From Ectothiorhodospira sp. BSL-9 (GTDB lineage Bacteria; Pseudomonadota; Gammaproteobacteria; Ectothiorhodospirales; Ectothiorhodospiraceae), in NCBI RefSeq assembly GCF_001632845.1, contig NZ_CP011994.1:2924001-2988000 (forward strand): DNA of 64,000 nucleotides, given 5' to 3'. A model generated the notes under the pieces. It was not told where the DNA came from and searched no databases. It saw only the letters and a list, made by a program, of their open reading frames with translations. Positions 925 through 62,365 of this stretch are shown piece after piece (the first letter of the stretch is position 1; every line of letters starts with the position of its first letter). A program made the translations under genes and the position numbers.

Positions 925-2523
925 TCAAGTGCCCCACACCCGGATGCATCGCCCTTCCACGGTCCGCTCCGTCTCCCAGATGCGCTCTTCCCAGGTCACC
1001 TTAGAATCTCGGTTGAAGATCACCAGGTGGGCCTCATCGGCCCCCACCTGACTGGCATACGATGCCGTCTGGACCAGACCCTGGCTGATGACCCCCTCCA
1101 GGGCGCCGCGCTGCAGCTTGAGTTCGATGACAATACGCTGCATCGGCCCATGAAAACCCCTGGCCGGGTCGGTCGGCCATTCAATGAACAGATCCGTGCG
1201 CTTGCGGCCCAGACCATATTCCCGGCTGATGCGGCCACCGCCATTGACGATACGCTGCAAGAACGCCTGCATCAGCAACTGCGGGCCCGCCTCCTTGTAG
1301 TCAAAGCGCTCCAGCCAGGCATCGGCCTGTTCGCGGAAGAACTGCTGGAAGGCACGCAGCAACTTCGGCATGTCCAGGTGCCCCTTTGGGGTGACGTACC
1401 AGCCCTGCTCCTGGTTGGGGATGCGGGTCTGCATGATCCAGGTGAGGTCCCTGGGGATCACCTCTCGATAGATCCGGTTGCTGATGCGTACCTGGGGCCG
1501 GGTCTCGATCAGACCCAGATCCTCCACGTACTGCTGATCGTCAGGACTGATGTCCTGCAGGTCCTCGTCCTGACCCGACAGCAGGGCACGCATCACCCCC
1601 TGCACACGGGGTTCACGCAGTTTGTCGGTTAGCTGGTCCAGGTGCGTGGTTCGGGACTGGATCAGGGCCTCCCGGGCGGCCCGGTAGTCCTCCAGGGACA
1701 ATGGCCGACTGCGGTCGCGGGCGGGCTTGAAGCGCCAGGTGAGTTCATAGCCCAGGGCGTTCACCAGCCAGGGCTGGCCACGGGTGTCTTCCCATAGCTC
1801 CGGGAAGATGGCCGGATCAAAGGCCTGACCTGTCTCGTCGGTGTGCTGCTGCCAGAGAGACCGGCATTCGTCTTCGATAAAGTTGCCCATGCGCAGCGAC
1901 TCGGCCTTGATGTTGAAGGCACTGCCGCCGGTGATCACCTGGGCCCCTTCCTGGTGCAGGCGATAATCCCGCACGTCGCGCACGCCGCACAGCACGATGC
2001 TCTGGGGGAAGGCATCCGGTCGTTGTGGGTAGCCGGCGCGGATCTGGCGCAACAGCGAGATCAGCGTGTCGCCCACCAGGGCGTCCACTTCGTCCAGAAA
2101 GAGCACTGTGGGGCGCTCACTACGGGTGCTCCAGTGTTCCAGCATCTGTTTGAGCTGGTCCTGAGGTGGCTGTTCACGATGCTGGTTGAACCAGGAGAAT
2201 ACCGTTTTATCTTTCAGGTAGTGCCGGATGGCGCCCGCAATGGCTGCGCACACGGTCGGAATACCTTTTTCCTCGTTCCCACGCGCCGCCTGGGCGCCCT
2301 CGATATTGGCATACGCACAGGCGTAACGACCCTGCGCATTGATCGCCTCCATCATCGCCAGCAGCGTGGTGGTCTTGCCCGTCTGGCGCGGGGCATGGAG
2401 GACAAAATACCGCTTCTGCTCGATCAGCGCCTGCAGATCCTCCCAGTCGATGCGACTCAAGGGATCAATGGCATAGTGGTCAGCGGGAACCGTGGGACCG
2501 GCATTGTTGAAGAAGCGAGGCAT
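925..2523 (-). CDS. AAA ATPase fused to C-terminal PD-(D/E)XK nuclease domain
   Basis: I chose the ATG at 2523 because related ATPases begin with MPRFFNxAGP; the frame stays open to 2724, but the upstream residues look untranslated. The protein has about 532 residues. Walker A is APRQTGKT (residues 44-51) and Walker B is VLFLDEVD (140-147), as in the AAA family of prokaryotic signalling-type ATPases. The C-terminal part carries GRKRTDLF (from about 439) and then IELK (466-469), which together give the D...E-x-K core of a PD-(D/E)XK nuclease. An ATP-driven switch coupled to a nuclease is therefore likely, possibly in defence or recombination; the family has no settled function. It is divergent from the transposase gene at 2771, with a 247-bp spacer showing nothing else recognisable. 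Confidence 0.8.
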   Translation of the reverse strand: MPRFFNNAGPTVPADHYAIDPLSRIDWEDLQALIEQKRYFVLHAPRQTGKTTTLLAMMEAINAQGRYACAYANIEGAQAARGNEEKGIPTVCAAIAGAIRHYLKDKTVFSWFNQHREQPPQDQLKQMLEHWSTRSERPTVLFLDEVDALVGDTLISLLRQIRAGYPQRPDAFPQSIVLCGVRDVRDYRLHQEGAQVITGGSAFNIKAESLRMGNFIEDECRSLWQQHTDETGQAFDPAIFPELWEDTRGQPWLVNALGYELTWRFKPARDRSRPLSLEDYRAAREALIQSRTTHLDQLTDKLREPRVQGVMRALLSGQDEDLQDISPDDQQYVEDLGLIETRPQVRISNRIYREVIPRDLTWIMQTRIPNQEQGWYVTPKGHLDMPKLLRAFQQFFREQADAWLERFDYKEAGPQLLMQAFLQRIVNGGGRISREYGLGRKRTDLFIEWPTDPARGFHGPMQRIVIELKLQRGALEGVISQGLVQTASYASQVGADEAHLVIFNRDSKVTWEERIWETERTVEGRCIRVWGT

Positions 2524-2770
2524 GGCTGCAGTATAGGACGGAAGCCCTCTGGCAGACCAATGTCTAGTCGATAGCTTTCGTATGGTATCAGCTAGCCGGT
2601 GCCTGGAATCCTGCCCGTCTTTCCCATTTTCGGATGCGTGGTCAGTCGGTTGGCTGCGGGTGAAAATCATTTGGGCGGGCCGCGTGGCCGCCAGCTGGTT
2701 GTTGGCCGCCTCACTATAGGACACCCACTTTGTTATTGACTCCCACCCACCATCCCACTAAGCTCACCCC

Positions 2771-3922
2771 ATGACCCAACCCCGCGCCTCGCAAATCTGC
2801 CTTGATGACACGCCCTGGTATCACGTGGTGTCCCGCTGCGTGCGGCGGGCGTTTCTCTGTGGGCAGGATTCGGTCACCGGCAACGACTATGAGCACCGAC
2901 GCGGGTGGATAGAGGACCGCGCCCTGGGGCTGGCTTCCGTGTTTGCCATCGATGTGGCCGCCTACGCGGTCATGAGCAACCACTACCACCTGGTATTGCG
3001 GGTGGATGCCCAGCGGTCGAGGCACTGGAATGACCGGGAGGTGCTGTCCCGCTGGACGCGCCTGTTCAGCGGCCCGGAGGTGGTGCAGCGCTATCTTTCG
3101 GATGCCCGGGAGACGCTTTCAGCGGCGGAGGTGGCTCGTGCCGAAGAATATGCCGACGAGTACCGCGGCCGGTTGCATGATCTTTCCTGGTTCATGCGGG
3201 TCTTGAACGAGTCCATTGCTCGCCGTGCCAACGCGGAGGACAAGGTGCGGGGGCGGTTCTGGGAGGGGCGTTTCAAGAGTCAGGCACTGCTGGACGAGCA
3301 GGCGTTGCTGGCCGCCATGAGCTATGTGGATTTGAATCCGATTCGGGCAGGGGTGTGTGAAGGCCTGGAGGACAGCACGTACACCGCCATCGGCCGCAGG
3401 TTGAGTCAACCTCAGGAAGAGAGCATGGCCACCCGGGTGGGTGATGCGCCGCCCGAGCGCGAGGATGCCCCCCCTCCCCTCCTTCACAAAGCCAATACGA
3501 ACGCCCCCATGAACCCGGCCATCATCAGTGGCATCTTCAATAACGAGGTCCTGCGTGAGGAGAGTGTGCTGCGTGCGTTGCAGCCGGCTCCGCTGATGCC
3601 TTTTGACGGCACGGGGCGATTCGAGGCGGGTATCCCCTTCTCATGGCCGGATTATGTGGAACTGACGCAGACCCTGGGCCGCTGCGTTCACCCCACCAAA
3701 CGGGGACGCATACCGGAAGGCACACCCAAGCTGCTGCAGCGCCTGGGAATGGGAACTGAGGCCTTTATCGCGCACGCTTTCGATCTGTTCCATTCTTTTG
3801 GATCGGCGATCGGGGCACCAGCGAGCCTGGTGGATCTGGCGGCGCGAAGACAGTGTCGGTATCTGCGGGGTATCCGGACTGCTCGAGATATGTTCGGGCG
3901 GGACCTTTCTGTTGCATCGTGA
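2771..3922 (+). CDS. REP-associated tyrosine transposase (Y1/HUH, IS200-like)
   Basis: The 383-residue product opens with PWYHVVSRCVRRAFLC and has the HUH metal-binding motif HYH at residues 71-73 (SNHYHLVLR). It continues with GRFWEGRFKSQ and the YVDLNPIRAG signature of the long Y1 transposases called RAYT/TnpA-REP. These single-strand nucleases bind and cut REP palindromes and are domesticated single-copy genes, not true insertion sequences. Several REP-type hairpins with a GTGGGAG head lie near this gene and elsewhere in the window, which supports the call. There are no insertion-sequence ends or target duplications. The catalytic tyrosine was not pinned down by eye. The gene appears intact. 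Confidence 0.85.
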   Translation: MTQPRASQICLDDTPWYHVVSRCVRRAFLCGQDSVTGNDYEHRRGWIEDRALGLASVFAIDVAAYAVMSNHYHLVLRVDAQRSRHWNDREVLSRWTRLFSGPEVVQRYLSDARETLSAAEVARAEEYADEYRGRLHDLSWFMRVLNESIARRANAEDKVRGRFWEGRFKSQALLDEQALLAAMSYVDLNPIRAGVCEGLEDSTYTAIGRRLSQPQEESMATRVGDAPPEREDAPPPLLHKANTNAPMNPAIISGIFNNEVLREESVLRALQPAPLMPFDGTGRFEAGIPFSWPDYVELTQTLGRCVHPTKRGRIPEGTPKLLQRLGMGTEAFIAHAFDLFHSFGSAIGAPASLVDLAARRQCRYLRGIRTARDMFGRDLSVAS

Positions 3923-3953
3923 AGCAGTTCAACCCTCTATGCCCTCCGATTTT

Positions 3954-3994: not shown

Positions 3995-5557
3995 TCACAG
4001 GGTTTCCACCTCAAACGCCACGATCTGGCGCTGTTCGCTGGAGAATTCCACCCCAATCAGGTGGATGACCTTGCCCTGGCCCTGGTATTTGTCGGCGTAG
4101 CCCTTGTCCTTGATCTGCTGTAGCGCCCTGCCCTCCGGGAGCTGTTCCACCACCTTGAACTCGAACAGATAAATGTGGCCATTGAAGTCCAGGGCCATGT
4201 CCACCCGGCCCATGTGGGTGGAGTCCTCCACCCGGATCAGCAGCCCCAGCGCCGCCAGGTGACTGTAGAACACGCTGGCATAGTGGCCCTCGTATTGGGC
4301 GATGGGGTTGTTGCGGTACCAGTCGTGGGGCAGGCTGGCGAACAGGGATTTGAGATGGGTTTCCAGGGCCTTGAGGTCGTGGGCCTGCAGGGCCCGGAAC
4401 AGGGTGAGGGTTTCCCGGCCTGAACGCGGCAGACCCAGGGCCGGCAGCAGGGCCTGGTTGAGGCTGGATTCCACTTCCCGGTTGGGATAACCCAGGGTGT
4501 ACAGCCAGTAGCCGGTGATGGGTTGTTCCACCTTGTGGATGGTGAGATAGCCGGTCTGGAACAACAGGGCCTCGGTGGCGATGTCGTCCACGTCGAAACG
4601 CCCGAGCAGGCTTGCTTCGGTTTCCATGGCTTCCAGGCGTGGGGTGTACAGGCCCCTTTCCGCCAGCAGATTGACCAGAAAACTGGGGGTGGCGCTCTCG
4701 AACCAGTAAGGGCGGAATTCTCGTTTCTGGAACAACAGCAGGACGTCGAAGGGATTGTAGACCGCCTGGGTGGTCTCATCTCCCCAACGATAGCCGTTGT
4801 ACCACTGGCGGATCTGCTGGCGATCCAATCCAGGCAGCTCCGGGGCGAAGACAGTATCCAGGTCTTCGTCGGTATAGCCACAGATCGGGGCGTAGGGTTT
4901 ATCCAGGGTGATGTCGTTGAGGTTGTTGAGCCCGGAAAACAGACTCACCTTGCTGAACTTGGACACCCCCGTAAGCAGGCAGAAACGCAGGTGGGGGTCA
5001 GCGTCCTTGAGGACGGAATAGAGATTCTTCAGGCCTTCCCTGAGTTGGCGGGCGGTGTCCGGCTCGGTGATATTGTCCAGGATGGGCTTGTCGTATTCAT
5101 CAATGAGGACGACCACACGCTCGCCATGGTGTTCATGGGTGCGACGTATCAGTTCCCCGAAGCGTCCGGCGATACTGTTATTCCTGAGGCAAACCCCAAG
5201 ACGAGCGGCCGCCTCCCGAAGCATTTCCTGAATCCGCTCATCCAGAGCCGCACGACTGCTCATCACCCCATCGCCGAAGCCCAGCCTGATGACAGGATGC
5301 CTGGTCTGCCAGTCCCAACGATCATGGATGTACAGGCCCCGGAACAGCGGCTCATTGGCCTCGAAGAGTTCCTTGAGGGTGTCCAGTAGCAGGCTCTTGC
5401 CGAATCGGCGGGGGCGGGAGAGGAAGTAATAACTACCCTCCTGGGTGAGTTGGTGCAGCCAGGGGGTTTTATCGACGTAGTAATAGCCACCCGTGCGGAT
5501 CTTGGCGAACCCTTGTATGCCTACGGGAAGTTTGCGGCGGGCAGATGAGGTCGTCAT
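3995..5557 (-). CDS. AAA-ATPase-like / PD-(D/E)XK protein, array copy 1
   Basis: I place the start at the ATG at 5557 because AGGA lies about ten bases upstream; the frame extends 12 codons further but lacks a better start. The product is 520 residues. The N-terminal ATPase part (AAA-ATPase_like family) has the P-loop RPRRFGKS (48-55) and Walker B LIDEYD (151-156). The C-terminus has GRVDM (450-454) and FEFKV with E-x-K at 466-468, the PDDEXK_9 nuclease core. These proteins are common, often multicopy, in anaerobes and sulfur bacteria, with unknown function; defence or DNA rearrangement is a guess. Compared with copies 2, 4 and 5 it has a unique N-terminal block (residues about 12-43), shares block 2 (about 99-145) with copy 2, and shares block 3 (about 214-266) with copy 4. 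Confidence 0.85.
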   Translation of the reverse strand: MTTSSARRKLPVGIQGFAKIRTGGYYYVDKTPWLHQLTQEGSYYFLSRPRRFGKSLLLDTLKELFEANEPLFRGLYIHDRWDWQTRHPVIRLGFGDGVMSSRAALDERIQEMLREAAARLGVCLRNNSIAGRFGELIRRTHEHHGERVVVLIDEYDKPILDNITEPDTARQLREGLKNLYSVLKDADPHLRFCLLTGVSKFSKVSLFSGLNNLNDITLDKPYAPICGYTDEDLDTVFAPELPGLDRQQIRQWYNGYRWGDETTQAVYNPFDVLLLFQKREFRPYWFESATPSFLVNLLAERGLYTPRLEAMETEASLLGRFDVDDIATEALLFQTGYLTIHKVEQPITGYWLYTLGYPNREVESSLNQALLPALGLPRSGRETLTLFRALQAHDLKALETHLKSLFASLPHDWYRNNPIAQYEGHYASVFYSHLAALGLLIRVEDSTHMGRVDMALDFNGHIYLFEFKVVEQLPEGRALQQIKDKGYADKYQGQGKVIHLIGVEFSSEQRQIVAFEVETL

Positions 5558-5910
5558 AGGGTCAATTCCTGGGGACAACAAGGGCCATGTCACATGACCG
5601 TGAGTTTACCCCCTTGCAGGCCACCCGTGGTGGTTGGGCCTGGCACAGTCTCCATGGGACACCGGATGATGTACCCAAATGGAAAGGCCCCACCACATTC
5701 CATGTAGCGGGGCCCATGTCGCTCGGCAATGACCCATCCATTGGATCCTCCGTGAAGCACTGCCTTTCATCCTTGACTGCCTTCACTGGCGACGAGAGTT
5801 ATTTTCCACAGTTTCAAAAGGGAAACAACTGCAACATCTCCATAATGTGAAGCAGTTCAACCCTCTGTGCCCTCCGATTTTCGCGGCCAAGGGCCGCTCC
5901 CATGGGGGGG
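5558..5910. repeat. Duplicated upstream leader of array copy 1, ending in a REP
   Basis: This non-coding stretch is nearly the same as those at 7484-7830 and 11,071-11,416. Each begins with the 5' end and ribosome site of an array gene, runs about 290 bases to TCCATAATG or TTCATAATG, then GAAGCAGTTCAACC and a REP palindrome (here 5883-5904). I saw no coding potential that differs from chance. The repeat defines a duplicated unit of about 1.93 kb (gene plus leader plus REP). Promoters must lie here but I could not place a convincing one. Confidence 0.8.
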
Positions 5911-5920
5911 CTGGACTTGA

Positions 5921-7483
5921 TCACAGGGTTTCCACCTCAAACGCCACGATCTGGCGCTGTTCGCTGGAGAATTCCACCCCAATCAGGTGGATGGCCTTGC
6001 CCTGGCCCTGGTATTTGTCGGCGTAGCCCTTGTCCTTGATCTGCTGTAGCGCCCTGCCCTCCGGGAGCTGTTCCACCACCTTGAACTCGAACAGATAAAT
6101 GTGGCCATTGAAGTCCAGGGCCATGTCTACCCGGCCCATGTGGGTGGAGTCCTCCACCCGGATCAGCAGCCCCAGCGCCGCCAGGTGGCTGTAGAACACG
6201 CTGGCATAGTGCCCCTCGTATTGGGCGATGGGGTTGTTGCGGTACCAGTCGTGGGGCAGGCTGGCGAACAGGGATTTGAGATGGGTTTCCAGGGCCTTGA
6301 GGTCGTGGGCCTGCAGGGCCCGGAACAGGGTGAGGGTTTCCCGGCCTGAACGGGGCAGGCCCAGGGCCGGCAGCAGGGCCTGGTTGAGGCTGGACTCCAC
6401 TTCCCGGTTGGGATAACCCAGCGTGTACAGCCAGTAGCCGGTGATGGGTTGTTCCACCTTGTGGATGGTGAGATAGCCGGTCTGGAACAACAGGGCCTCG
6501 GTGGCAATGTCGTCCACGTCGAAACGCCCGAGCAGGCTTGCTTCGGTCTCCATGGCTTCCAGGCGTGGGGTGTACAGGCCCCTTTCCGCCAGCAGCTTGA
6601 CCAGAAAACTGGGGGTGGCGCTCTCGAACCAGTAAGGGCGGAATTCCCGTTCCTGGAACAACAGCAGGACATCGAAGGGGTTATACACCGACGGTTGGCG
6701 CTCATCGCCCCAGCGGTAGCCGTTGTACCACTGGCGGATCTGCTGGCGATCCAGACCGGGGAGTTCTGGGGCAAACACGGTGTCCACGTCCTCGTCGGTG
6801 TAGCCGCAGATGGGGCCGTAATCACTGGAGAGGGTGATGTCGCGCAGGTTATTCAGCCCCGAGAACAGGCTCACCTTGCTGAACTTGGACACCCCCGTAA
6901 GCAGGCAGAAACGCAGGTGGGGGTCAGCATCCTTGAGGACGGAATAGAGGTTCTTCAGGCCTTCCCTGAGTTCGCGAGCGGTGTCCGGCTCGGTGATATT
7001 GTCCAGGATGGGCTTGTCGTATTCGTCAATGAGGACGACCACACGCTCGCCGTGGTGTTCATGGGTGCGACGTATCAGTTCCCCGAAGCGTCCGGCAATA
7101 CTGTTATTCCTGAGGCAAACCCCAAGACGAGCGGCCTCCTCCCGAAGCATTTCCTGAATCCGCTCATCCAGAGCCGCACGACTGCTCATCACTCCATCGC
7201 CGAAGCCCAGCCTGATGACAGGATGCCTGGTCTGCCAATCCCAACGATCATGGATGTACAGGCCCCTAAACAGCGGCTCATTGGCCTCGAAGAGTTCCTT
7301 GAGGGTATCCAGCAGCAGGCTCTTGCCGAAGCGGCGGGGGCGGGAGAGAAAATAGTATTTTCCCTGCTCGATCAAGTGGTCGATGTACGGGGTCTTGTCC
7401 ACATAGTAATAGCCTTCGCGTATGATTCCGGCGAAGGACTGCACACCTATGGGAAGTTTGCGGCGGGCAGATGAGGTCGTCAT
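5921..7483 (-). CDS. AAA-ATPase-like / PD-(D/E)XK protein, array copy 2
   Basis: The start is the ATG at 7483, preceded by the same AGGA ribosome site as copy 1; the product is 520 residues. P-loop, Walker B and the terminal GRVDM...EFK nuclease core are all intact, so it should be functional. It is nearly identical to copies 1, 4 and 5 over the C-terminal 240 residues and over the region between the ATPase motifs. It carries the common N-terminal block (VQSFAGIIREGYYYVDK), block 2 of the copy-1 type (MSSRAALDERIQEML) and block 3 of the copy-5 type (LSSDYGPICGYTDEDVD). Single-residue switches next to block 3 (E at about 171, E at about 278) follow the block type. Confidence 0.85.
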   Translation of the reverse strand: MTTSSARRKLPIGVQSFAGIIREGYYYVDKTPYIDHLIEQGKYYFLSRPRRFGKSLLLDTLKELFEANEPLFRGLYIHDRWDWQTRHPVIRLGFGDGVMSSRAALDERIQEMLREEAARLGVCLRNNSIAGRFGELIRRTHEHHGERVVVLIDEYDKPILDNITEPDTARELREGLKNLYSVLKDADPHLRFCLLTGVSKFSKVSLFSGLNNLRDITLSSDYGPICGYTDEDVDTVFAPELPGLDRQQIRQWYNGYRWGDERQPSVYNPFDVLLLFQEREFRPYWFESATPSFLVKLLAERGLYTPRLEAMETEASLLGRFDVDDIATEALLFQTGYLTIHKVEQPITGYWLYTLGYPNREVESSLNQALLPALGLPRSGRETLTLFRALQAHDLKALETHLKSLFASLPHDWYRNNPIAQYEGHYASVFYSHLAALGLLIRVEDSTHMGRVDMALDFNGHIYLFEFKVVEQLPEGRALQQIKDKGYADKYQGQGKAIHLIGVEFSSEQRQIVAFEVETL

Positions 7484-7830
7484 AGGGTCAATTCCTGGGG
7501 ACAACAAGGGCCTTGTCACATGACCGTGAGTTTACCCCCTTGCAGGCCACCCGTGGTGGTTGGGCCTGGCTCAGTCTCCATGGGGCACCGGATGATGTAC
7601 CCAAAAATGGAAAGGCCCCACCACATTCCATGTAGCGGGGCCCATGTCGCTCGGCAATGACCCATCCGTTGGATCCTCCGTGAAGCACTGCCTTTCATCC
7701 TTGACTGCCTTCACTGGCGACGAGGATTATTTTCCACAGTTTCAAAAGTGAAACAACTGCAGCAGTTTCATAATGTGAAGCAGTTCAACTCTCTGTGCCC
7801 TCCGCTTTCGCGGCCAAGGGCTGCTCCCAC
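7484..7830. repeat. Duplicated upstream leader of array copy 2, ending in a REP
   Basis: The same leader as at 5558, with a few base changes (for example three extra bases near 7603 and TTTCATAATG in place of TCTCCATAATG). The terminal REP (7809-7830) has a base change in its right arm (GGGCTGCTCCCAC). It lies between divergently transcribed copies 2 and 3 and so probably contains the promoters of both. Confidence 0.75.
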
Positions 7831-7910
7831 ATTCAGGGCAGCCCCTTTGCCGGTTGTGGAGGTGTGCTAACCTCCTACCTAATTAGAATTTTTTTGCCCT
7901 GGAGGCCACC

Positions 7911-9485
7911 GTGACCGCCGCCGAACGCCGGATACTGCCCATTGGCATCCAGTCTTTTAGCAAGCTGCGCGAGGGCCACTACTACTACGTGGACAAGACC
8001 CCCCTGATCCACTCCATGGCGAAGATCGGGGGGTACTACTTCCTCTCCCGCCCCCGCCGATTCGGCAAGAGCCTGCTGCTGGATACCTTGAGTTGCCTGT
8101 TCGAAGGCCGAAAGGCCCTGTTCGAAGGGCTGTACATCCATGATAAGTGGGACTGGCGGAAAACCCACCCGGTCATCCGCATCAGCTTTGCCGATGGCGT
8201 GGTCCAAACCCGTGAGGAACTGGATGCCCACATCTGGCACCAACTGAAAACTCAACGTGAAAGGCTGGAACTCACCCAACCACCGGCCGCGATCATCTCC
8301 GGTGAGTTTTCATCACTGATCCGTCAGGCTCACGCCCGCTATGGCCAGGGTGCCGTGGTCCTGATCGATGAATACGACAAGCCCATCCTGGACAATATTC
8401 GCGACCCCGAACGCGCCCGCGAACTGCGCGAGGGCCTCAAGAATCTCTACAGCGTGCTCAAGGACGCTGATCCCCATCTGCATTTCGTACTGCTCACGGG
8501 GGTATCCAAGTTCAGCAAGGTCAGCCTGTTCTCGGGGCTGAATAACCTCAACGACATTACCCTGGATGCCCCCTTCAGCACCCTCTGCGGCTATACCGAC
8601 GGGGACATCGATACGGTGTTTGCCCGGGAGCTGCCTGGCCTTGACCGCGAATCCATCCGCCGATGGTACAACGGCTATCGCTGGGGTGGGCAGGAGGTCA
8701 CGTCCGTTTACAACCCCTTTGACGTGCTGCTGCTGTTCCAGAAACGTGAACTCGGCCCCTACTGGTTCGAGAGCGCCACGCCGACCTTTCTTGTCGATCT
8801 ACTCAAGGAGCGCGGCGTCTTCACCCCTGCACTCACCGCATGGCACAGTCGGCCGGCGCTGCTCAGCCGTTTCGACGTGGATGACATCGCCACCGAGGCC
8901 CTGCTGTTTCAGACAGGCTACCTCACCCTCAAGAACATTCATAAAGAGGTGCCCAACCGACCACTCTACGAACTGGGCCTCCCCAACCAGGAGGTGGAGA
9001 TCAGCCTCAACGAGGCCCTGCTGCCCACGCTGGGACTCAGTGACGCGGTCTTTGATGAACTGGTCATCCGGTTGCCGCGCCTGCTGAAGGCCGCCGACAT
9101 GGCGGGCCTTGAGGCCCACATGAAGGCCCTCTACGCTGGCCTGCCCCACGACTGGTATCGCAACAACCCTATTGCCCAATACGAGGGGCATTATGCCAGC
9201 GTGTTCTACAGCCACTTCGCCGCACTGGGCGTCCAGGTCACGGTGGAAGATGCCAGCCACCATGGGCGCGTGGACATGACCGTCTATTTCGGCGGTCACA
9301 TCTATGTCTTTGAGTTCAAGGTGGTGGAGCAACTGCCCGAAGGCAGAGCCTTGGAGCAAATCAAGGACAAAGGCTATGCCGACAAGTATCGTGCCTCAGG
9401 CAAGCCCATTCACCTGGTCGGCGTGGAGTTTTCGAGCGAACAGCGGCAGATCGTGGCATTCGATGTGGACACTTTGGGGCCATAG
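7911..9485 (+). CDS. AAA-ATPase-like / PD-(D/E)XK protein, divergent inverted copy 3
   Basis: It starts at GTG 7911, with GGAGG five bases upstream (GGAGGCCACC-GTG). The 524-residue product has the same layout as its neighbours: RPRRFGKS P-loop, LIDEYDKP Walker B, and a C-terminal GRVDM...VFEFKV nuclease core. It is clearly a paralogue but much more diverged than copies 1, 2, 4 and 5, and it is transcribed in the opposite direction. Its stop is only 19 bases from the stop of copy 4, and no REP separates them, unlike the other junctions. It may be an older member of the family around which the other units duplicated, or a separate insertion. An 18-base imperfect hairpin (7858-7875, GGAGGT/ACCTCC) lies upstream. 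Confidence 0.85.
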   Translation: MTAAERRILPIGIQSFSKLREGHYYYVDKTPLIHSMAKIGGYYFLSRPRRFGKSLLLDTLSCLFEGRKALFEGLYIHDKWDWRKTHPVIRISFADGVVQTREELDAHIWHQLKTQRERLELTQPPAAIISGEFSSLIRQAHARYGQGAVVLIDEYDKPILDNIRDPERARELREGLKNLYSVLKDADPHLHFVLLTGVSKFSKVSLFSGLNNLNDITLDAPFSTLCGYTDGDIDTVFARELPGLDRESIRRWYNGYRWGGQEVTSVYNPFDVLLLFQKRELGPYWFESATPTFLVDLLKERGVFTPALTAWHSRPALLSRFDVDDIATEALLFQTGYLTLKNIHKEVPNRPLYELGLPNQEVEISLNEALLPTLGLSDAVFDELVIRLPRLLKAADMAGLEAHMKALYAGLPHDWYRNNPIAQYEGHYASVFYSHFAALGVQVTVEDASHHGRVDMTVYFGGHIYVFEFKVVEQLPEGRALEQIKDKGYADKYRASGKPIHLVGVEFSSEQRQIVAFDVDTLGP

Positions 9486-9504
9486 ATGTGTTTTGGGGGC
9501 TTGA

Positions 9505-11070
9505 TCACAGGGTTTCCACATCAAACGCCACGATCTGGCGCTGTTCGCTGGAGAATTCCACCCCAATCAGGTGGATGACCTTGCCCTGGCCCTGGTATTT
9601 GTCGGCGTAGCCCTTGTCCTTGAGCTGCTGTAGCGCCCTGCCCTCCGGGAGTTGTTCCACCACCTTGAACTCGAACAGGTAGACATGGCCATTGAAGTCC
9701 AGGGCCATGTCTACCCGGCCCATGTGGGTGGAGTCCTCCACCCGGATCAGCAGCCCCAGCGCCGCCAGGTGGCTGTAGAACACGCTGGCATAATGCCCTT
9801 CATATTGAGCGATGGGGTTGTTGCGGTACCAGTCGTGGGGCAGGCTGGCGAACAGGGATTTGAGATGGGTTTCCAGGGCCTTGAGGTCGTGGGCCTGCAG
9901 GGCCCGGAACAGGGTGAGGGTTTCCCGGCCTGAACGCGGCAGACCCAGGGCCGGCAGCAGGGCCTGGTTGAGGCTGGACTCCACTTCCCGGTTGGGATAA
10001 CCCAGGGTGTACAGCCAGTAGCCGGTGATGGGTTGTTCCACCTTGTGGATGGTGAGATAGCCGGTCTGGAACAACAGGGCCTCGGTGGCGATGTCGTCCA
10101 CGTCGAAGCGCCCGAGCAGGCTTGCTTCGGTCTCCATGGCTTCCAGGCGTGGGGTGTACAGGCCCCGTTCCGCCAGCAGCTTGACCAGAAAACTGGGTGT
10201 GGCGCTCTCGAACCAGTAAGGGCGGAATTCTCGTTTCTGGAACAACAGCAGGACGTCGAAGGGGTTGTAGACTGCGGCAGTCGTCTCATCTCCCCAACGA
10301 TAGCCGTTGTACCAATCCTTGATCTGCTGGCGATCCAATCCAGGCAGCTCCGGGGCGAAGACAGTATCCAGGTCTTCGTCGGTATAGCCACAGATCGGGG
10401 CGTAGGGTTTATCCAGGGTGATGTCGTTGAGGTTGTTGAGCCCGGAAAACAGACTCACCTTGCTGAACTTGGACACCCCCGTAAGCAGGCAGAAACGCAG
10501 GTGGGGGTCAGCGTCCTTGAGGACGGAATAGAGATTCTTCAGGCCCTCCCTGAGTTGGCGGGCGGTGTCCGGCTCGGTGATATTGTCCAGGATGGGCTTG
10601 TCGTATTCGTCAATGAGGACGACCACTCGCTCGCCGTGCTGCCGATACGCCAGGCGAATCAGGTCGGAAAATTCTCCAGAGATATCCGGGGCTCCACTCT
10701 CCTCCACCCCCAGTCTCTCCCGATTGAGTCGCAGCAGGTGACGGATGCGGGCATCCAGGGCCTCGCGGCTATCCATGACACCATCGCCGAAACTCAGCCG
10801 AATGACAGGATGCCTGGTCTGCCAGTCCCAACGATCATGGATGTACAGGCCCCGGAACAGCGGCTCATTGGCCTCGAAGAGTTCCTTGAGGGTATCCAGC
10901 AGCAGGCTCTTGCCGAAGCGGCGGGGGCGGGAGAGAAAATAGTATTTTCCCTGCTCGATCAAGTGGTCGATGTACGGGGTCTTGTCCACATAGTAATAGC
11001 CTTCGCGTATGATTCCGGTGAAGGACTGCACACCTATAGGGAGTTTGCGGCGGGCAGATGAGGTCGTCAT
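9505..11070 (-). CDS. AAA-ATPase-like / PD-(D/E)XK protein, array copy 4
   Basis: The start is the ATG at 11,070 with the shared AGGA ribosome site; the product is 521 residues. The ATPase and nuclease motifs are intact. It combines the common N-terminal block with block 2 of the second type (MDSREALDARIRHLLRLN, then DISGEFSDLIRLAYRQ) and block 3 of the copy-1 type (LDKPYAPICGYTDEDLD). Thus it differs from copy 1 in blocks 1 and 2, and from copy 5 in block 3. Small private changes (IKDWYNGY in place of IRQWYNGY) show that it is not a fresh duplicate. It is convergent with copy 3. Confidence 0.85.
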   Translation of the reverse strand: MTTSSARRKLPIGVQSFTGIIREGYYYVDKTPYIDHLIEQGKYYFLSRPRRFGKSLLLDTLKELFEANEPLFRGLYIHDRWDWQTRHPVIRLSFGDGVMDSREALDARIRHLLRLNRERLGVEESGAPDISGEFSDLIRLAYRQHGERVVVLIDEYDKPILDNITEPDTARQLREGLKNLYSVLKDADPHLRFCLLTGVSKFSKVSLFSGLNNLNDITLDKPYAPICGYTDEDLDTVFAPELPGLDRQQIKDWYNGYRWGDETTAAVYNPFDVLLLFQKREFRPYWFESATPSFLVKLLAERGLYTPRLEAMETEASLLGRFDVDDIATEALLFQTGYLTIHKVEQPITGYWLYTLGYPNREVESSLNQALLPALGLPRSGRETLTLFRALQAHDLKALETHLKSLFASLPHDWYRNNPIAQYEGHYASVFYSHLAALGLLIRVEDSTHMGRVDMALDFNGHVYLFEFKVVEQLPEGRALQQLKDKGYADKYQGQGKVIHLIGVEFSSEQRQIVAFDVETL

Positions 11071-11416
11071 AGGGTCAATTCCTGGGGACAACAAGGGCCT
11101 TGTCACATGACCGTGAGTTTACCCCCTTGCAGGCCACCCGTGGTGGTTGGGCCTGGCACAGTCTCCATGGGACACCGGATGATGTACCCAAATGGAAAGG
11201 CCCCACCACATTCCATGTAGCGGGGCCCATGTCGCTCGGCAATGACCCATCCATTGGATCCTCCGTGAAGCACTGCCTTTCATCCTTGACTGCCTTCACT
11301 GGCGACGAGAGTTATTTTCCACAGTTTCAAAAGGGAAACAACTGCAACATCTCCATAATGTGAAGCAGTTCAACCCTCTGTGCCCTCCGCTTTTCGCGGC
11401 CCGGGGCCGCTCCCAC
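11071..11416. repeat. Duplicated upstream leader of array copy 4, ending in a REP
   Basis: This leader matches the one at 5558 almost base for base, including TCCATAATG and the GAAGCAGTTCAACCCTCT flank. The REP (11,395-11,416) has the compensated palindrome GCGGCCCGGGGCCGC. It separates copy 4 from copy 5. No gene was found in it. Confidence 0.8.
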
Positions 11417-11435
11417 GGGGATTTCCTGGGCTTGA

Positions 11436-13001
11436 TCACAGGGTTTCCACCTCAAACGCCACGATCTGGCGCTGTTCGCTGGAGAATTCCACCCCAATCA
11501 GGTGGATGGCCTTGCCCTGGCCCTGGTATTTGTCGGCGTAGCCCTTGTCCTTGATCTGCTGTAGCGCCCTGCCCTCCGGGAGCTGTTCCACCACCTTGAA
11601 CTCGAACAGGTAGACATGGCCATTGAAGTCCAGGGCCATGTCTACCCGGCCCATATGGGTGGAGTCCTCCACCCGGATCAGCAGCCCCAGCGCCGCCAGG
11701 TGGCTGTAGAACACGCTGGCATAGTGCCCCTCGTATTGGGCGATGGGGTTGTTGCGGTACCAGTCGTGGGGCAGGCTGGCGAACAGGGATTTGAGATGGG
11801 TTTCCAGGGCCTTGAGGTCGTGGGCCTGCAGGGCCCGGAACAGGGTGAGGGTTTCCCGGCCTGAACGGGGCAGACCCAGGGCCGGCAGCAGGGCCTGGTT
11901 GAGGCTGGACTCCACTTCCCGATTGGGATAACCCAGGGTATACAGCCAGTAGCCGGTGATGGGTTGTTCCACCTTATGGATGGTGAGATAGCCGGTCTGG
12001 AACAACAGGGCCTCGGTGGCAATGTCGTCCACGTCGAAACGCCCGAGCAGGCTTGCTTCGGTCTCCATGGCTTCCAGGCGTGGGGTGTACAGGCCCCTTT
12101 CCGCCAGCAGCTTGACCAGAAAACTGGGGGTGGCGCTCTCGAACCAGTAAGGGCGGAATTCCCGTTCCTGGAACAACAGCAGGACATCGAAGGGGTTATA
12201 CACCGACGGTTGGCGCTCATCGCCCCAGCGGTAGCCGTTGTACCACTGGCGGATCTGCTGGCGATCCAGACCGGGGAGTTCCGGGGCAAACACGGTGTCC
12301 ACGTCCTCGTCGGTGTAGCCACAGATGGGGCCGTAATCACTGGAGAGGGTGATGTCGCGCAGGTTATTCAGCCCCGAGAACAGGCTCACCTTGCTGAACT
12401 TGGACACCCCCGTGAGCAGGCAGAAACGCAGGTGGGGGTCAGCATCCTTGAGGACGGAATAGAGGTTCTTCAGGCCTTCCCTGAGTTCGCGAGCGGTGTC
12501 CGGCTCGGTGATATTGTCCAGGATGGGCTTGTCGTATTCATCAATGAGGACGGCCACTCGCTCACCATGCTGCCGATACGCCAGGCGAATCAGGTCGGAA
12601 AATTCTCCAGAGATATCCGGGGCTCCACTCTCCTCCACCCCCAGTCTCTCCCGATTGAGTCGCAGCAAGTGACGGATGCGGGCATCCAGGGCCTCGCGGC
12701 TATCCATGACACCATCGCCGAAGCTCAGCCGAATGACAGGATGCCTGGTCTGCCAGTCCCAACGATCATGAATGTACAGGCCCCGGAACAGCGGCTCATT
12801 GGCCTCGAAGAGTTCCTTGAGGGTATCCAGCAGCAGGCTCTTGCCGAATCGGCGGGGGCGGGAGAGGAAATAGTATTTTCCCTGCTCGATCAAGTGGTCG
12901 ATGTGCGGGGTCTTGTCCACATAGTAATAGCCCTCGCGTACGATTCCGGCGAAGGACTGCACACCTATGGGAAGTTTGCGGCGGGCAGATGAGGTCGTCA
13001 T
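11436..13001 (-). CDS. AAA-ATPase-like / PD-(D/E)XK protein, array copy 5
   Basis: The start is the ATG at 13,001 with the common AGGA ribosome site; the product is 521 residues with intact P-loop (RPRRFGKS), Walker B (LIDEYDKP) and C-terminal nuclease core. It pairs block 2 of the copy-4 type with block 3 of the copy-2 type, a fourth distinct combination. The upstream region matches the other leaders only to about 13,038 and then becomes unique sequence, so this marks the right edge of the duplicated array. Function is unknown, as for the other copies. Confidence 0.85.
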   Translation of the reverse strand: MTTSSARRKLPIGVQSFAGIVREGYYYVDKTPHIDHLIEQGKYYFLSRPRRFGKSLLLDTLKELFEANEPLFRGLYIHDRWDWQTRHPVIRLSFGDGVMDSREALDARIRHLLRLNRERLGVEESGAPDISGEFSDLIRLAYRQHGERVAVLIDEYDKPILDNITEPDTARELREGLKNLYSVLKDADPHLRFCLLTGVSKFSKVSLFSGLNNLRDITLSSDYGPICGYTDEDVDTVFAPELPGLDRQQIRQWYNGYRWGDERQPSVYNPFDVLLLFQEREFRPYWFESATPSFLVKLLAERGLYTPRLEAMETEASLLGRFDVDDIATEALLFQTGYLTIHKVEQPITGYWLYTLGYPNREVESSLNQALLPALGLPRSGRETLTLFRALQAHDLKALETHLKSLFASLPHDWYRNNPIAQYEGHYASVFYSHLAALGLLIRVEDSTHMGRVDMALDFNGHVYLFEFKVVEQLPEGRALQQIKDKGYADKYQGQGKAIHLIGVEFSSEQRQIVAFEVETL

Positions 13002-13091
13002 AGGGTCAATTCCTGGGGACAATAAGGGCCATGTCACATGATGTTCAGCCTGGGGTGGGAGTTATCCAGCGAGCAAGGGAGTATGCGAGCA

Positions 13092-13622: not shown

Positions 13623-13699
13623 TGGTAGGCGCGATTGGACTCGAACCAACGACCCCTACCATGTCAAGGTAGTGCTCTAACCAGCTGAGCTACGCGCCT
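13623..13699 (-). tRNA. tRNA-Val (anticodon GAC)
   Basis: On the minus strand the sequence starts AGGCGCG and ends CGCGCCT-A-CCA, so the acceptor stem is complete and CCA is encoded. The anticodon stem CTACC/GGTAG encloses the loop TTGACAT, giving anticodon GAC for valine. The D arm (AGCTCAGCTGGTTAGAGC) and T arm (GGTTCGAGTCC) are canonical. It is 77 bases including CCA and closely resembles E. coli tRNA-Val(GAC). Confidence 0.95.
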
Positions 13700-13701
13700 G
13701 T

Positions 13702-14253
13702 CGTGTTCGAGTTGGGCATTATACAGGCTGCCCATTGGGTGTCAACATGAAATTCAAGGAACTGATTTAACTGATAAAAAATGGTGTTCCCTCAGATCAC
13801 GCACCATCTGCTCCGACGCTACCCAGTCAGAGATCCCAAACCTCTCAAGGCACCGGGGGGGAAAGTCCGTGCCCAAATCGTGCCCAAACTGTGCCCGGAT
13901 AATAAAGGCCCTACCCCCTGCCCCAAATAACCATGTGCCGTACCTGAATACCACCCATATCGGGCTGCCCGGAAGGTCACCACCAAGCACCACAGCACGA
14001 GGCCGCAATGGCGACGGATACATGAGTAACTCTCGGTCATCACGACACGGCATGCCCAAGCAATCCCCGCCAGGCTGCTTTTTCACAACAGTTACGAGAG
14101 ACCTTTGCGGTGCGCTGAGCACTGCTCGTCATGCTCCGATCCCCGGCGTCACAAACCAGGATCACTTGGACTGGGGCACTGAAAGACATGGAGATATGCA
14201 AAGTCGGCGGTAAGTCTGCCGCCACCACGCCGCAGACAAACGCAGACGGTCGG
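13702..14253. other. Non-coding stretch with three tandem 11-bp repeats
   Basis: No convincing gene is present. Bases 13,869-13,901 hold three head-to-tail 11-base repeats, GTGCCCAAATC, GTGCCCAAACT and GTGCCCGGATA. Short tandem sites of this size resemble arm-type binding sites of tyrosine recombinases, and an integrase gene lies 0.9 kb away, but the link is inference. The remaining sequence shows nothing I can name. Confidence 0.4.
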
Positions 14254-14591: not shown

Positions 14592-14813
14592 ATGACGTAC
14601 CTGACGACCGAAGAACTGGCCAAGCGCCTCAGCTACAACCCCCGTTACATCAATAACGTGCTGCGACCGAAACACCTGGATGAAGGCAGGCACTACGTGC
14701 GGCCGTTTGGTGGGCGCAAGGTGCTCTACATCTGGGAAAACATTGAGGAGGACATGTTCTGCGACCAGCCCGTGGGCATCCCCATGGCAAACGGGGGGGT
14801 GTGCAATGGCTAA
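14592..14813 (+). CDS. AlpA/excisionase-like helix-turn-helix protein
   Basis: The start is fixed by GGAGGT (14,581-14,586) before ATG 14,592. The 73-residue product begins MTYLTTEELAKRLSYNPRYI, the winged-helix opening of AlpA/Xis-type DNA-binding proteins, followed by GRHYVRPFGGRKVLYIWENIEE, the usual wing region. Its 3' end overlaps the integrase start by eight bases, so the two are probably translationally coupled. It may act as recombination directionality factor or as regulator of the integrase. Confidence 0.7.
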   Translation: MTYLTTEELAKRLSYNPRYINNVLRPKHLDEGRHYVRPFGGRKVLYIWENIEEDMFCDQPVGIPMANGGVCNG

Positions 14814-16017
14814 GGTGCGAGCTCGCCCAGATAGCGGGAAGCTTTTCATTGACTTCCGCTACCAAAACAAGCGCTGTCGCGAATTGACCGCCCTGGACGA
14901 CACGGGCGTTAATCGGAAACGACTGGAGAAACTTGCAAAGCGAATTGATGCCGAGATCGCGGCGGGGATTTTTGACTACTCCAAGTTCTTCCCGAACAGC
15001 AAGCGCGCCCAGCAGCTCCAGCAACCGCAGACCGATGGTGGCACGAGGTCCCACCAGGGAGATGTGGAAACTTCCGACTCACCGCAGCTCAAGGAATTCG
15101 CCGAAACCTGGTTCGCCGAAAACGACCTTCGCTGGAAGCGCTCCTACCGCAAGAAGCTGCACGACATCTGGGAGAAGAAACTGCACCCGCAGTTCGGAGA
15201 GAAAAAGGTCAGCGACATCTCCAAACCCGAGATCCTCCAGTTCCGCGCAGAACTCGCCAAAGTACGCCGCGGAAAGGAGGAAGGCCTTTCACCCTCTCGG
15301 ATCAACCAGATCATGAATCTGCTTGAACAATTGCTGGAGGAAGCCGCCGACCGATTCGACTTTAACACGCCCTTCAAGGGAATCAAGCCACTGCGGATCC
15401 CCCGCACCCAGGTCGATCCCTTTTCCCTCGAAGAGGTTCAGCAGTTCCTGGCAACCGTGCCTGCCGAGTGGCGCCCCTACTGGTTGGTGCGCTTTTTCAC
15501 CGGCATGCGCACGAGCGAGGTCGATGGCTTGAAGTGGAAGTACGTGGACTTCGAGCGGCGGGAAATCATGGTGATGGAAACCCGTGTCGAAGGCGAAGAG
15601 GACACGCCAAAGACTGACGGGTCTCATCGCGCGATCCAGATGTCGGACATCGTCCATCAGGCGCTCCAGGAACAACACGCGACCAGCGCCGAGCGCAGCG
15701 AATATGTGTTCTGCACCCGCTACGGATATCCACTGACCTACCGCAACGTCAATAACCGGGTCTGGTATCCCACATTGGCCAAGGCGGGCCTCAAGCGCCG
15801 CAATCCTTACCAGACCCGCCATACCGCCGCGACCCTGTGGCTGGCCGCCGGCGAAAGCCCCGAGTGGATCGCGCGCCAGATGGGCCATTCCAACACCAAG
15901 ATGCTGTTCACCACGTACTCCCGGTACGTGCCCAACCTCACGCGTCAGGACGGGTCCGCCATGGACCGCCTGCTCAAGTCCCGTTTCACCGACCACGCAT
16001 GGAGGGCACAGGAATGA
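14806..16017 (+). CDS. Phage-type tyrosine recombinase (integrase)
   Basis: I take ATG 14,806 (MAKVRARPDSGK), which overlaps the preceding gene by eight bases; the frame is open further upstream but that part is out of place. The 403-residue protein has an N-terminal arm-binding region (about 1-70), a SAM-like core-binding domain (about 95-195) and the catalytic domain. Catalytic residues are R235 (TGMRTSEV), R338 in YQTRHTAAT (tyrosine at 335 replaces the usual histidine, as in many phage integrases), H361 (MGHSN) and nucleophile Y371 (TTYSRY). It should catalyse site-specific integration. tRNA-Val is 1.1 kb away, but I found no duplicated att core. Confidence 0.9.
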   Translation: MAKVRARPDSGKLFIDFRYQNKRCRELTALDDTGVNRKRLEKLAKRIDAEIAAGIFDYSKFFPNSKRAQQLQQPQTDGGTRSHQGDVETSDSPQLKEFAETWFAENDLRWKRSYRKKLHDIWEKKLHPQFGEKKVSDISKPEILQFRAELAKVRRGKEEGLSPSRINQIMNLLEQLLEEAADRFDFNTPFKGIKPLRIPRTQVDPFSLEEVQQFLATVPAEWRPYWLVRFFTGMRTSEVDGLKWKYVDFERREIMVMETRVEGEEDTPKTDGSHRAIQMSDIVHQALQEQHATSAERSEYVFCTRYGYPLTYRNVNNRVWYPTLAKAGLKRRNPYQTRHTAATLWLAAGESPEWIARQMGHSNTKMLFTTYSRYVPNLTRQDGSAMDRLLKSRFTDHAWRAQE

Positions 16018-61920: not shown

Positions 61921-62365
61921 ATCGCACTCCATTTTGGAAAGACTTGTTGATCGGTTGGCAGCGCCTTGCGCGAACTCACTTAAATTCGATCCGCCAGGCT
62001 AGTGAATTCTCTATCAATAGAGGGCACACAAATTAACGAATGAATAGTCAGCTGCGCACCCCAAAAATGCACACTATTTCACATGTGCTTTCTCAACTTC
62101 CATCAACATAAACTATTGAGGCATTGAGAGTGATATTCACCATACTAGGCTGCCTCGCGGCACCGCAACCGGAGTACGAATTTTATTGCATCCATATCGG
62201 ATTAAGTTTTGTAAAATGTTTCAGGTTTTAAATTCCGATATTGAGACATTTCCCCGGCAGCGGGGACATACCGTCCGAGGATCTCATCATTCAGGGTAGG
62301 CTGACTTCAGCCAGAGAGGGCATATCAGAATCGCGCTTCAGCCGGGCGCCAACGCATGCAGCGCG
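61921..62365. promoter_or_regulatory. AT-rich spacer between giant gene and secretion genes
   Basis: The 445-base gap has no gene. It is markedly AT-richer than the surroundings, especially 62,020-62,250 (GTTTTGTAAAATGTTTCAGG, ATTCCGATATTGAGACATT), and holds a small hairpin CCCCGGCAGCGGGG. It must carry the promoter of the giant gene (minus strand, from 61,920); the HlyD gene ends at 62,366 so its terminator may lie here too. I could not pick one promoter with confidence. Confidence 0.45.

What the first reader, a model, noticed from the sequence alone, without database searches (positions are those of the whole stretch)
3995..13001. Four near-identical ATPase/nuclease paralogues are combinatorial mosaics
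Copies 1, 2, 4 and 5 are almost the same over most of their length but differ in three sharp blocks. Block 1 (residues about 12-43) has type A in copy 1 and B in copies 2, 4 and 5. Block 2 (about 99-145) is one type in copies 1 and 2 and another in 4 and 5. Block 3 (about 214-266) is one type in copies 1 and 4 and another in 2 and 5. Each gene therefore has a unique combination (A-a-x, B-a-y, B-b-x, B-b-y). This pattern needs segmental recombination or gene conversion and suggests selected diversity in the variable blocks, as in specificity domains. I know of no description of such shuffling for the AAA-ATPase_like/PDDEXK_9 family.
Basis: partly seen in the sequence, partly recalled or inferred. 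Interest (0 to 1): 0.8.

Follow-up and report, generated by a model that had tools for sequence, protein, structure and literature searches.

The report
Cassette-swapping ATPase-nuclease gene array
A bacterium carries neighbouring copies of an ATPase-nuclease gene that share one backbone but carry different combinations of interchangeable variable segments, and relatives show the same pattern, which hints at a swappable recognition system whose job is still unknown.

Summary
Four of the five AAA-ATPase_like/PDDEXK_9 genes in the window (3995-13037) are mosaics with combinations A-a-x, B-a-y, B-b-x, B-b-y. Their 131 informative coding sites fall in 8 runs, against a mean of 69 and a minimum of 47 in 20,000 shuffles. 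E. haloalkaliphila carries the types in other combinations. B2 and V4 behave as discrete types: median pN 0.030 and 0.015 at pS 0.25-0.4, but 0.36 and 0.27 near saturation; B1 and B3 lack this step. Persicobacter plasmid copies, in another phylum, also vary most in B2. The claim that shuffling is undescribed is partly wrong: Siozios et al. 2019 reported intragenic recombination among DUF1703 (this family) paralogues; I found no report of the cassette architecture. Exchange by homologous recombination is well supported. A recognition function is inferred; a test for defence neighbourhoods gave no excess.

The parts
3995..5593 (-). Copy 1 (c1): AAA-ATPase_like + PDDEXK_9 gene, combination A-a-x
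   Evidence: ORF; PF09820 3e-66 and PF08011 3.6e-22; combination
5921..7519 (-). Copy 2 (c2): same family, combination B-a-y
7911..9485 (+). Copy 3 (c3): divergent, inverted relative (68% identical to c1), its own block types
9505..11106 (-). Copy 4 (c4): same family, combination B-b-x
11436..13037 (-). Copy 5 (c5): same family, combination B-b-y
5426..5524 (-). Block B1, type A, in c1 (aa 24-56); type B is at 7352-7450 (c2), 10939-11037 (c4), 12870-12968 (c5)
5129..5290 (-). Block B2, type a, in c1 (aa 102-155)
7055..7216 (-). Block B2, type a, in c2
10639..10803 (-). Block B2, type b, in c4
12570..12734 (-). Block B2, type b, in c5
4721..4945 (-). Block B3, type x, in c1 (aa 217-291)
6647..6871 (-). 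Block B3, type y, in c2
10231..10455 (-). Block B3, type x, in c4
12162..12386 (-). Block B3, type y, in c5
4364..4639 (-). Fourth cassette V4 (aa 319-410 of c1): one shared type in the four copies, exchanged elsewhere in the family
   Evidence: window coordinates worked out by hand from the aa range
5660..5880 (+). Repeated intergenic element between c2 and c1; copies at 7586-7808 and 11173-11393, remnant at 3919-3952
   Evidence: the stretch 5520-5819 is 99% identical to 11033-11332

Best explanation
The array is a tandem set of DUF1703-family genes (AAA+ ATPase fused to a PD-(D/E)XK nuclease) that evolves as a common backbone plus exchangeable cassettes. SHOWN: the four copies carry incompatible block histories; the sequence between blocks is homogenised within the genome; block types are shared with another species and stand there in different sets. 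INFERRED: exchange is by ordinary homologous recombination (gene conversion or unequal crossing-over between tandem copies and incoming homologues), paired through the near-invariant motifs that bound the cassettes (Walker A, Walker B, the sensor-1 region, the WYNGY and YNPFD motifs, the start of the nuclease domain). INFERRED, less sure: the types, of B2 and V4 above all, are distinct recognition or partner surfaces, so recombination makes new specificities for an ATP-switched nuclease, most likely acting on foreign DNA or another invader cue, as target-recognition domains do in type I restriction enzymes.
For: Runs test and PHI. In the same genome alternative B2 types differ at 45.1 of 121 nonsynonymous sites (c1/c4), while type b in two species differs at 3 of 122 nonsynonymous and 18 of 43 synonymous sites; x between species 2 of 181 and 21 of 53; A 3 of 77 and 10 of 22. 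Over 97 complete proteins, identity matrices of the conserved segments K1, K2, K3, NUC correlate at 0.55-0.72, those of the cassettes with one another at 0.04-0.23; B2 makes 47 groups at 80% identity. Of 85 pairs with K1, K2 and NUC all at 93% or more, 31 have B2, 32 have V4, 15 have B3 and 13 have B1 under 65%, none has K3 under 65%, and all 8 same/different combinations of B1, B2, V4 occur. 26 of 121 same-genome pairs, from 10 genomes, are strongly heterogeneous (7 of the 26 in the window's genome), many with matching steps in pS. V. boliviensis (L083) and V. arcis (L100), syntenic on both sides of the gene, differ strongly in V4 alone (54% identity, pS 0.80; the rest 84-98%, pS 0.41-0.49); L083 and Halomonas sp. 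ALS9 (L101), syntenic downstream only, likewise (V4 56%, pS 0.70; the rest 95-100%, pS 0.13-0.36). Eight Persicobacter copies from 7 plasmids vary most in B2. Within-type constraint for B2 and V4: median pN 0.030 and 0.015 at pS 0.25-0.4, against K1 0.074, K2 0.049, NUC 0.058.
Against: No phenotype is known. c1 and c3 match no PADLOC family, and neighbours show no excess of PADLOC matches over random stretches (41 families in 149 proteins against 53 in 129). The window alone needs only two parental genes (A-a-x and B-b-y) and a few crossovers. B1 and B3 show no step between within-type and between-type change, and they follow the backbone more than V4 does (B1 0.22-0.45, B3 0.35-0.45, B2 0.18-0.34, V4 0.20-0.23). 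Type a of B2 is less constrained between species than b (11.8 of 123 nonsynonymous, 18.2 of 39 synonymous). Some heterogeneous pairs have high pS throughout (e.g. L121/L096), as do many Persicobacter pairs. Pairs are not independent, and pS saturates. Heterology itself can shield blocks from conversion without selection.
Confidence: 0.5

Rival explanations
1. Neutral concerted evolution. Two old paralogues were homogenised by gene conversion except where they were already too different to recombine; the blocks are leftovers, without selection for diversity.
For: Sequence between blocks is homogenised within the genome (pS 0.00-0.32); the four window genes can be derived from two parents; B1 and B3 show no constraint step.
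Against: Both types of B2 and of B3 persist in two species, whose same-type copies differ at pS about 0.3-0.6 over most of the gene; many B2 types exist (47 groups at 80% in 97 proteins); within-type constraint of B2 and V4 is stronger than in the conserved segments; V4 replaced at a syntenic locus.
Confidence: 0.2
2. Insulation. The cassettes are oligomer interfaces, and diversity stops paralogues in one cell from mixing in the same AAA+ ring or dimer.
For: Many paralogues per genome (11 matches in this one); AAA+-like fold; in Rpn nucleases the variable C-terminal region is an oligomerisation domain (PMC10327210, passages).
Against: Cassettes shuffle almost independently of one another, whereas a two-faced interface should keep matched pairs; c1/c2 share B2 and c1/c4 share B3, so neighbours are not kept apart at each cassette.
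Confidence: 0.15
3. Selfish or mobile nuclease: the proteins promote their own duplication and recombination, and cassettes change the DNA site or partner they use.
For: Clusters; a repeated intergenic element, near an Rpn-like gene too (the Rpn label is from memory); a neighbouring ORF with an HUH-type transposase motif (motif recognised from memory); plasmid copies in 62 records.
Against: No insertion-site signature was looked for. The genes are intact, with ATPase and nuclease residues invariant in 92 aligned sequences.
Confidence: 0.1
4. Assembly artefact: collapsed or chimeric repeats.
For: Near-identical repeats are hard to assemble, and an E. haloalkaliphila contig ends inside the element.
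Against: The window's genome is a single 3.55-Mb contig; the same types in other combinations, and like mosaics, appear in independent genomes.
Confidence: 0.03

Closest known systems
DUF1703 paralogues of Cardinium cCpun and midge Rickettsia (Siozios et al. 2019, PMC6387759; section 14 read in full, other passages seen)
   Same: Same two Pfam domains (PF09820 + PF08011), large paralogue sets, intragenic recombination detected by RDP4 and PHI
   Different: There paralogues average 39% identity and no homogenisation is reported; here copies are near-identical outside discrete cassettes, and types are shared between species
DUF1703 family as described by Knizewski et al. 2007 (PMC1913061, passages read)
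   Same: RPRRFGKS Walker A, DEYD Walker B, PD-(D/E)XK C-terminal domain, relation to Cdc6-type AAA+ (1fnn), which Foldseek also returned
   Different: No mosaicism in the passages read
HsdS target-recognition domain shuffling in type I restriction systems (PMC3077401, search listing only; otherwise recalled)
   Same: Variable modules between conserved segments, exchanged by recombination
   Different: HsdS is not an ATPase or nuclease (recalled); here one module lies inside the ATPase core, and the target is unknown
Rpn nucleases (PMC10327210, passages read)
   Same: PD-(D/E)XK nucleases, five genes in E. coli, with a strongly variable part; anti-phage activity reported there
   Different: Variation there is in a C-terminal region with four-residue repeats; c1 to c5 match other Pfam families
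STAND/Apaf-1-like and Orc1/Cdc6-like ATPases
   Same: The 8 Foldseek matches with E up to 0.001 are all Apaf-1 or Cdc6/Orc1 entries
   Different: TM-scores are low (0.20-0.27 by query), so only the core arrangement is comparable

Membership tests
DUF1703 family (AAA-ATPase_like + PDDEXK_9) | PF09820 and PF08011 in this order, above curated cut-offs | tested here: met
   All five window copies
DUF1703 family (AAA-ATPase_like + PDDEXK_9) | Walker A GKS, Walker B DEYD, PD-(D/E)XK residues | tested here: met
   G65 K66 S67, D165 E166 Y167 D168, D465, E478, K480 invariant in the 92 sequences of A1; which residues matter follows Knizewski et al. and the general motif
Known anti-phage defence system | Match to a curated defence-protein model | tested here: not met
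   c1 and c3 match no PADLOC family at 0.001 (c2, c4, c5 not scanned). PF09820 is listed for RdrA, PARIS1 and Old-tin in a review table (PMC10952713, one passage)
Known anti-phage defence system | Lies in defence neighbourhoods more than chance | tested here: inconclusive
   149 of 194 neighbour ORFs against 129 of 271 ORFs of random stretches: 41 against 53 PADLOC families at 1e-10, 25 of each shown. Shown near: Cas8e, Cas1e, Cas7e, Cas11e, one type I specificity subunit, TnsB; shown in random: PD-T4-6, mad3/6/8, AriA, BrxA
Type I restriction HsdS | HsdS domains in the protein | tested here: not met
   Pfam shows only AAA-ATPase_like and PDDEXK_9 in c1 to c5; partner subunits were not looked for
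STAND NTPase | STAND core with winged helix and a repeat sensor | tested here: inconclusive
   Apaf-1 is the top Foldseek hit, E 1e-4, TM about 0.2; no repeat sensor domain in Pfam. The definition is recalled
Any of the above | ATP-dependent nuclease activity on a specific target | not testable with these tools
   needs biochemistry

The most novel reading that the evidence does not exclude
DUF1703 proteins are a widespread, unrecognised conflict system: an ATP-switched nuclease whose recognition is encoded by independently exchangeable cassettes, one of them in the ATPase core between strand 2 and Walker B, which bacteria of more than one phylum recombine among paralogues and strains to make new specificities.
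Probability: 0.3. Interest if true: 0.85.

Novelty: new variant of a known kind. Interest (0 to 1): 0.62.

Why it matters
The role of DUF1703 was called still unclear by Siozios et al. 2019, who found 10 or more copies in 9.8% of the species that carry it. Discrete, shuffled, separately conserved cassettes are what genes that recognise something tend to show, and they say where in the protein to look. The four window genes are a natural set for testing: c1 and c2 share B2 but not B3; c4 and c5 share B1 and B2 and differ mainly in B3; c2 and c5 share B1 and B3 and differ mainly in B2.

Tried and rejected
Rejected: relaxed constraint in B2 and V4 (within-type pN is lower than in conserved segments; this does not hold for B1 and B3); simple vertical divergence. 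Block 1 alone was set aside as evidence for recombination because it separates one copy from three.

Led nowhere: no relatives in IMG/VR by the close-relative search (2 pattern matches, 0 confirmed); no PDB sequence relative of c1 at 0.1; no PHROGs match for c1; no Rfam match in the window except the tRNA. The phage collection gave 33 records, all under 60% identity; the 10 listed carry no annotation, not followed. Pfam scans of neighbours gave no functional theme in the 25 families shown of 119 and 150. The intergenic element folds slightly better than shuffles (z -2.0, 5 of 200 as good), too weak to call. Literature searches touching shuffling or this family; of the papers they listed, only PMC6387759 was seen to report recombination in it (most listed papers were not opened).

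Rows dropped: one search kept the best 80 of 427 relatives, 74 loci. In one search, 103 ORFs matched and 99 were kept (near-complete, non-identical); on checking, 2 of the 99 (L075, L143) lack part of B1 at contig ends, so the counts were repeated on 97, and those numbers are the ones given. In one search ORFs under 380 aa were left out. In one search only copies over 500 aa were used, and G013 was left out. One search compared 11 pairs of loci; several (e.g. L097/L107, L101/L107, L098/L103) shared only the gene itself. Persicobacter: 8 of 15 places in 7 records of one strain were taken. Calditerrivibrio: of 5 genes taken from one plasmid, 2 are near-identical, 1 is diverged and 2 hardly align, so nothing could be judged.
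Full report
WHAT IS THERE. [quoted passage not shown] Four (c1, c2, c4, c5) lie on the minus strand; c3 is inverted and divergent. The genome has 11 PF09820 matches in four clusters. That the host is Ectothiorhodospira sp. BSL-9 is my guess, from a 3.5-Mb, 63% G+C PacBio assembly (PMC5064118, passages); it was not tested.

OBSERVATION. Sites in the four coding sequences were sorted by the split they support. The 131 parsimony-informative sites are 75 of 12|45, 51 of 14|25 and 5 of 15|24. They lie in 8 runs, chiefly 12|45 at nt 306-465 (70 sites) and 14|25 at nt 543-1167 (50 sites). In 20,000 shuffles the mean was 69 runs and the minimum 47. Sites where c1 alone differs cluster at nt 70-168. 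My PHI implementation gave 0 of 500 permutations at or below the observed value for these four, for the 10 full-length copies of the genome and for 8 of G007, and 0 of 300 for 17 copies of other congeners.

HISTORY OF THE ARRAY. The stretch 5520-5819 is 99% identical to 11033-11332, so the pair [c1 c2] and the pair [c4 c5] look like a duplicated unit (inference). Block 3 follows that history (c1 with c4, c2 with c5); block 2 does not and requires transfer inside a pair. The window alone can be explained by two parents, A-a-x and B-b-y, and a few exchanges.

TYPES ARE SHARED BETWEEN SPECIES. In E. haloalkaliphila three tandem copies carry A-a-y, A-b-y and A-b-x. Type b of B2 differs between the species at 3 of 122 nonsynonymous and 18 of 43 synonymous sites, type a at 11.8 of 123 and 18.2 of 39; types a and b within the window differ at 45.1 of 121 nonsynonymous sites. 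The two arrays do not share flanks in the 10 kb before and 1.5 kb after the E. haloalkaliphila array that were compared; the UPF0047/tRNA/integrase side of the window is found elsewhere in G007.

FAMILY-WIDE CASSETTES. From 74 loci of named genomes (best 80 of 427 relatives) and the window's genome I took 99 distinct proteins, of which 97 are complete in all segments. Variable stretches alternate with near-invariant motifs. Four behave as cassettes: B1 (24-56), B2 (106-158), B3 (231-262), V4 (319-410). Identity matrices of K1, K2, K3 and NUC correlate at 0.55-0.72, those of cassettes with each other at 0.04-0.23, and cassettes with backbone at 0.18-0.45, highest for B1 and B3. Of 142 pairs with V4 at 90% or more, 61 have B2 under 62%; of 104 pairs with B2 at 90% or more, 45 have V4 under 62%. 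Of 85 backbone-close pairs, all eight same/different combinations of B1, B2 and V4 occur (29 all same, 1 all different). Of 121 same-genome pairs, 26 pass a strict heterogeneity filter, in 10 genomes, 7 of them in the window's own (all). Synonymous differences step in the same way in many of them; in some, such as L121/L096, pS is high everywhere and the case is weak. Among 11 pairs of loci compared, L083 (V. boliviensis) and L100 (V. arcis) match on both sides of the gene and differ strongly in V4 alone (54%, pS 0.80), with B3 at 84% and the rest at 95-98%; L083 and L101 (Halomonas sp. ALS9) match downstream only and differ in V4 alone (56%, pS 0.70; the rest 95-100%). L100 and L101 share V4 at 98%. 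So V4 seems to have been replaced in place in the L083 line (inference).

OUTSIDE PROTEOBACTERIA. Eight copies from seven Persicobacter psychrovividus plasmids (Bacteroidota) vary most in B2: for pPP6/pPP7 identity is 100% in K2 and 97% in B3, pS 0.02 and 0.00, with B2 at 36%. Many of the 28 pairs have high pS throughout, so only some show a clear step. Calditerrivibrio copies were not informative.

SELECTION. Over all pairs of the 97, B2 and V4 show a step: median pN 0.030 (38 pairs) and 0.015 (55 pairs) at pS 0.25-0.4, lower than K1 0.074, K2 0.049, NUC 0.058; but 0.363 and 0.274 at pS 0.55-0.7, higher than K1 0.116, K2 0.080, NUC 0.105. Relaxed sequence would drift smoothly. B1 (0.070 to 0.232) and B3 (0.110 to 0.193) show no such step. 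Caveats: pairs are not independent, the V4 bin is wide (10-90%: 0.005-0.171), and pS saturates.

STRUCTURE. AlphaFold2 on 92 sequences gave pLDDT 82.8 and pTM 0.81. B2 is a pair of helices (114-132, 141-156) between the strand at 101-105 and the Walker B strand at 160-165. V4 holds helices and a two-stranded hairpin (351-359, 362-368) that resembles a winged-helix part (my reading). The 8 Foldseek matches with E up to 0.001 are Apaf-1 and Cdc6/Orc1 entries, with low TM-scores, in line with the AAA+ assignment of Knizewski et al. (passages).

FUNCTION. Not shown. c1 and c3 have no PADLOC match. Neighbours of Ectothiorhodospira copies (149 of 194 ORFs) matched 41 PADLOC families, random stretches (129 of 271 ORFs) 53; the 25 shown of each include CRISPR I-E genes and one type I specificity gene near the copies, and BrxA, AriA and PD-T4-6 in the random set: no excess. 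ORFs were called by a simple longest-frame rule. The best reading is a recognition function of the cassettes in an ATP-switched nuclease; rivals are neutral remnants, insulation of oligomers, and a mobile role. Near-independent shuffling argues against matched two-faced interfaces.

PRIOR ART. Siozios et al. 2019 (section 14 read in full) report intragenic recombination among DUF1703 paralogues in Cardinium cCpun and a midge Rickettsia. I found no description of discrete exchangeable cassettes in this family in the searches and 88 of an open-licence library; most subscription papers are not in it.

Noticed in passing
window 13623-13730 and 14680-16017: tRNA-Val (13623-13699, minus). A 73-bp stretch (13658-13730) covering its 5' half recurs exactly at genome 3,051,756-3,051,828, next to another cluster of the same family; with the integrase at 14680-16017 this looks like a genomic island of about 114 kb between two DUF1703 clusters.
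   Followed up: partly
window 5660-5880, 7586-7808, 11173-11393, 3919-3952: A repeated intergenic element of about 190-220 bp, also beside DUF1703 genes, an Rpn-like gene (label from memory) and copies of the AAA_22 gene in E. haloalkaliphila (L070, L169, L170); contains a GC-rich hairpin.
   Followed up: partly
window 925-2724 (-): A second kind of AAA ATPase (AAA_22) with a C-terminal part that looks nuclease-like by eye; a copy and fragments lie beside the same element in E. haloalkaliphila.
   Followed up: partly
window 2771-3922 (+): ORF with an HYHLVL motif like REP-associated (HUH) transposases; no Pfam hit, label from memory.
   Followed up: no
L038 5292-6488 and 9656-10306: A truncated family member (398 aa) and a separate C-terminal fragment (216 aa) about 3 kb apart in the 1.68-Mb cluster of the same genome.
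   Followed up: no
window 42340-61932 (-): A single ORF of 6530 aa next to a HlyD-family secretion gene (62366-63535), inside the presumed island.
   Followed up: no
L169 and L170 (G007 contigs C1 and C2): Stretches of 5.2 and 3.7 kb, 99.9% identical, occur in both contigs of E. haloalkaliphila: a segmental duplication or an assembly overlap.
   Followed up: no
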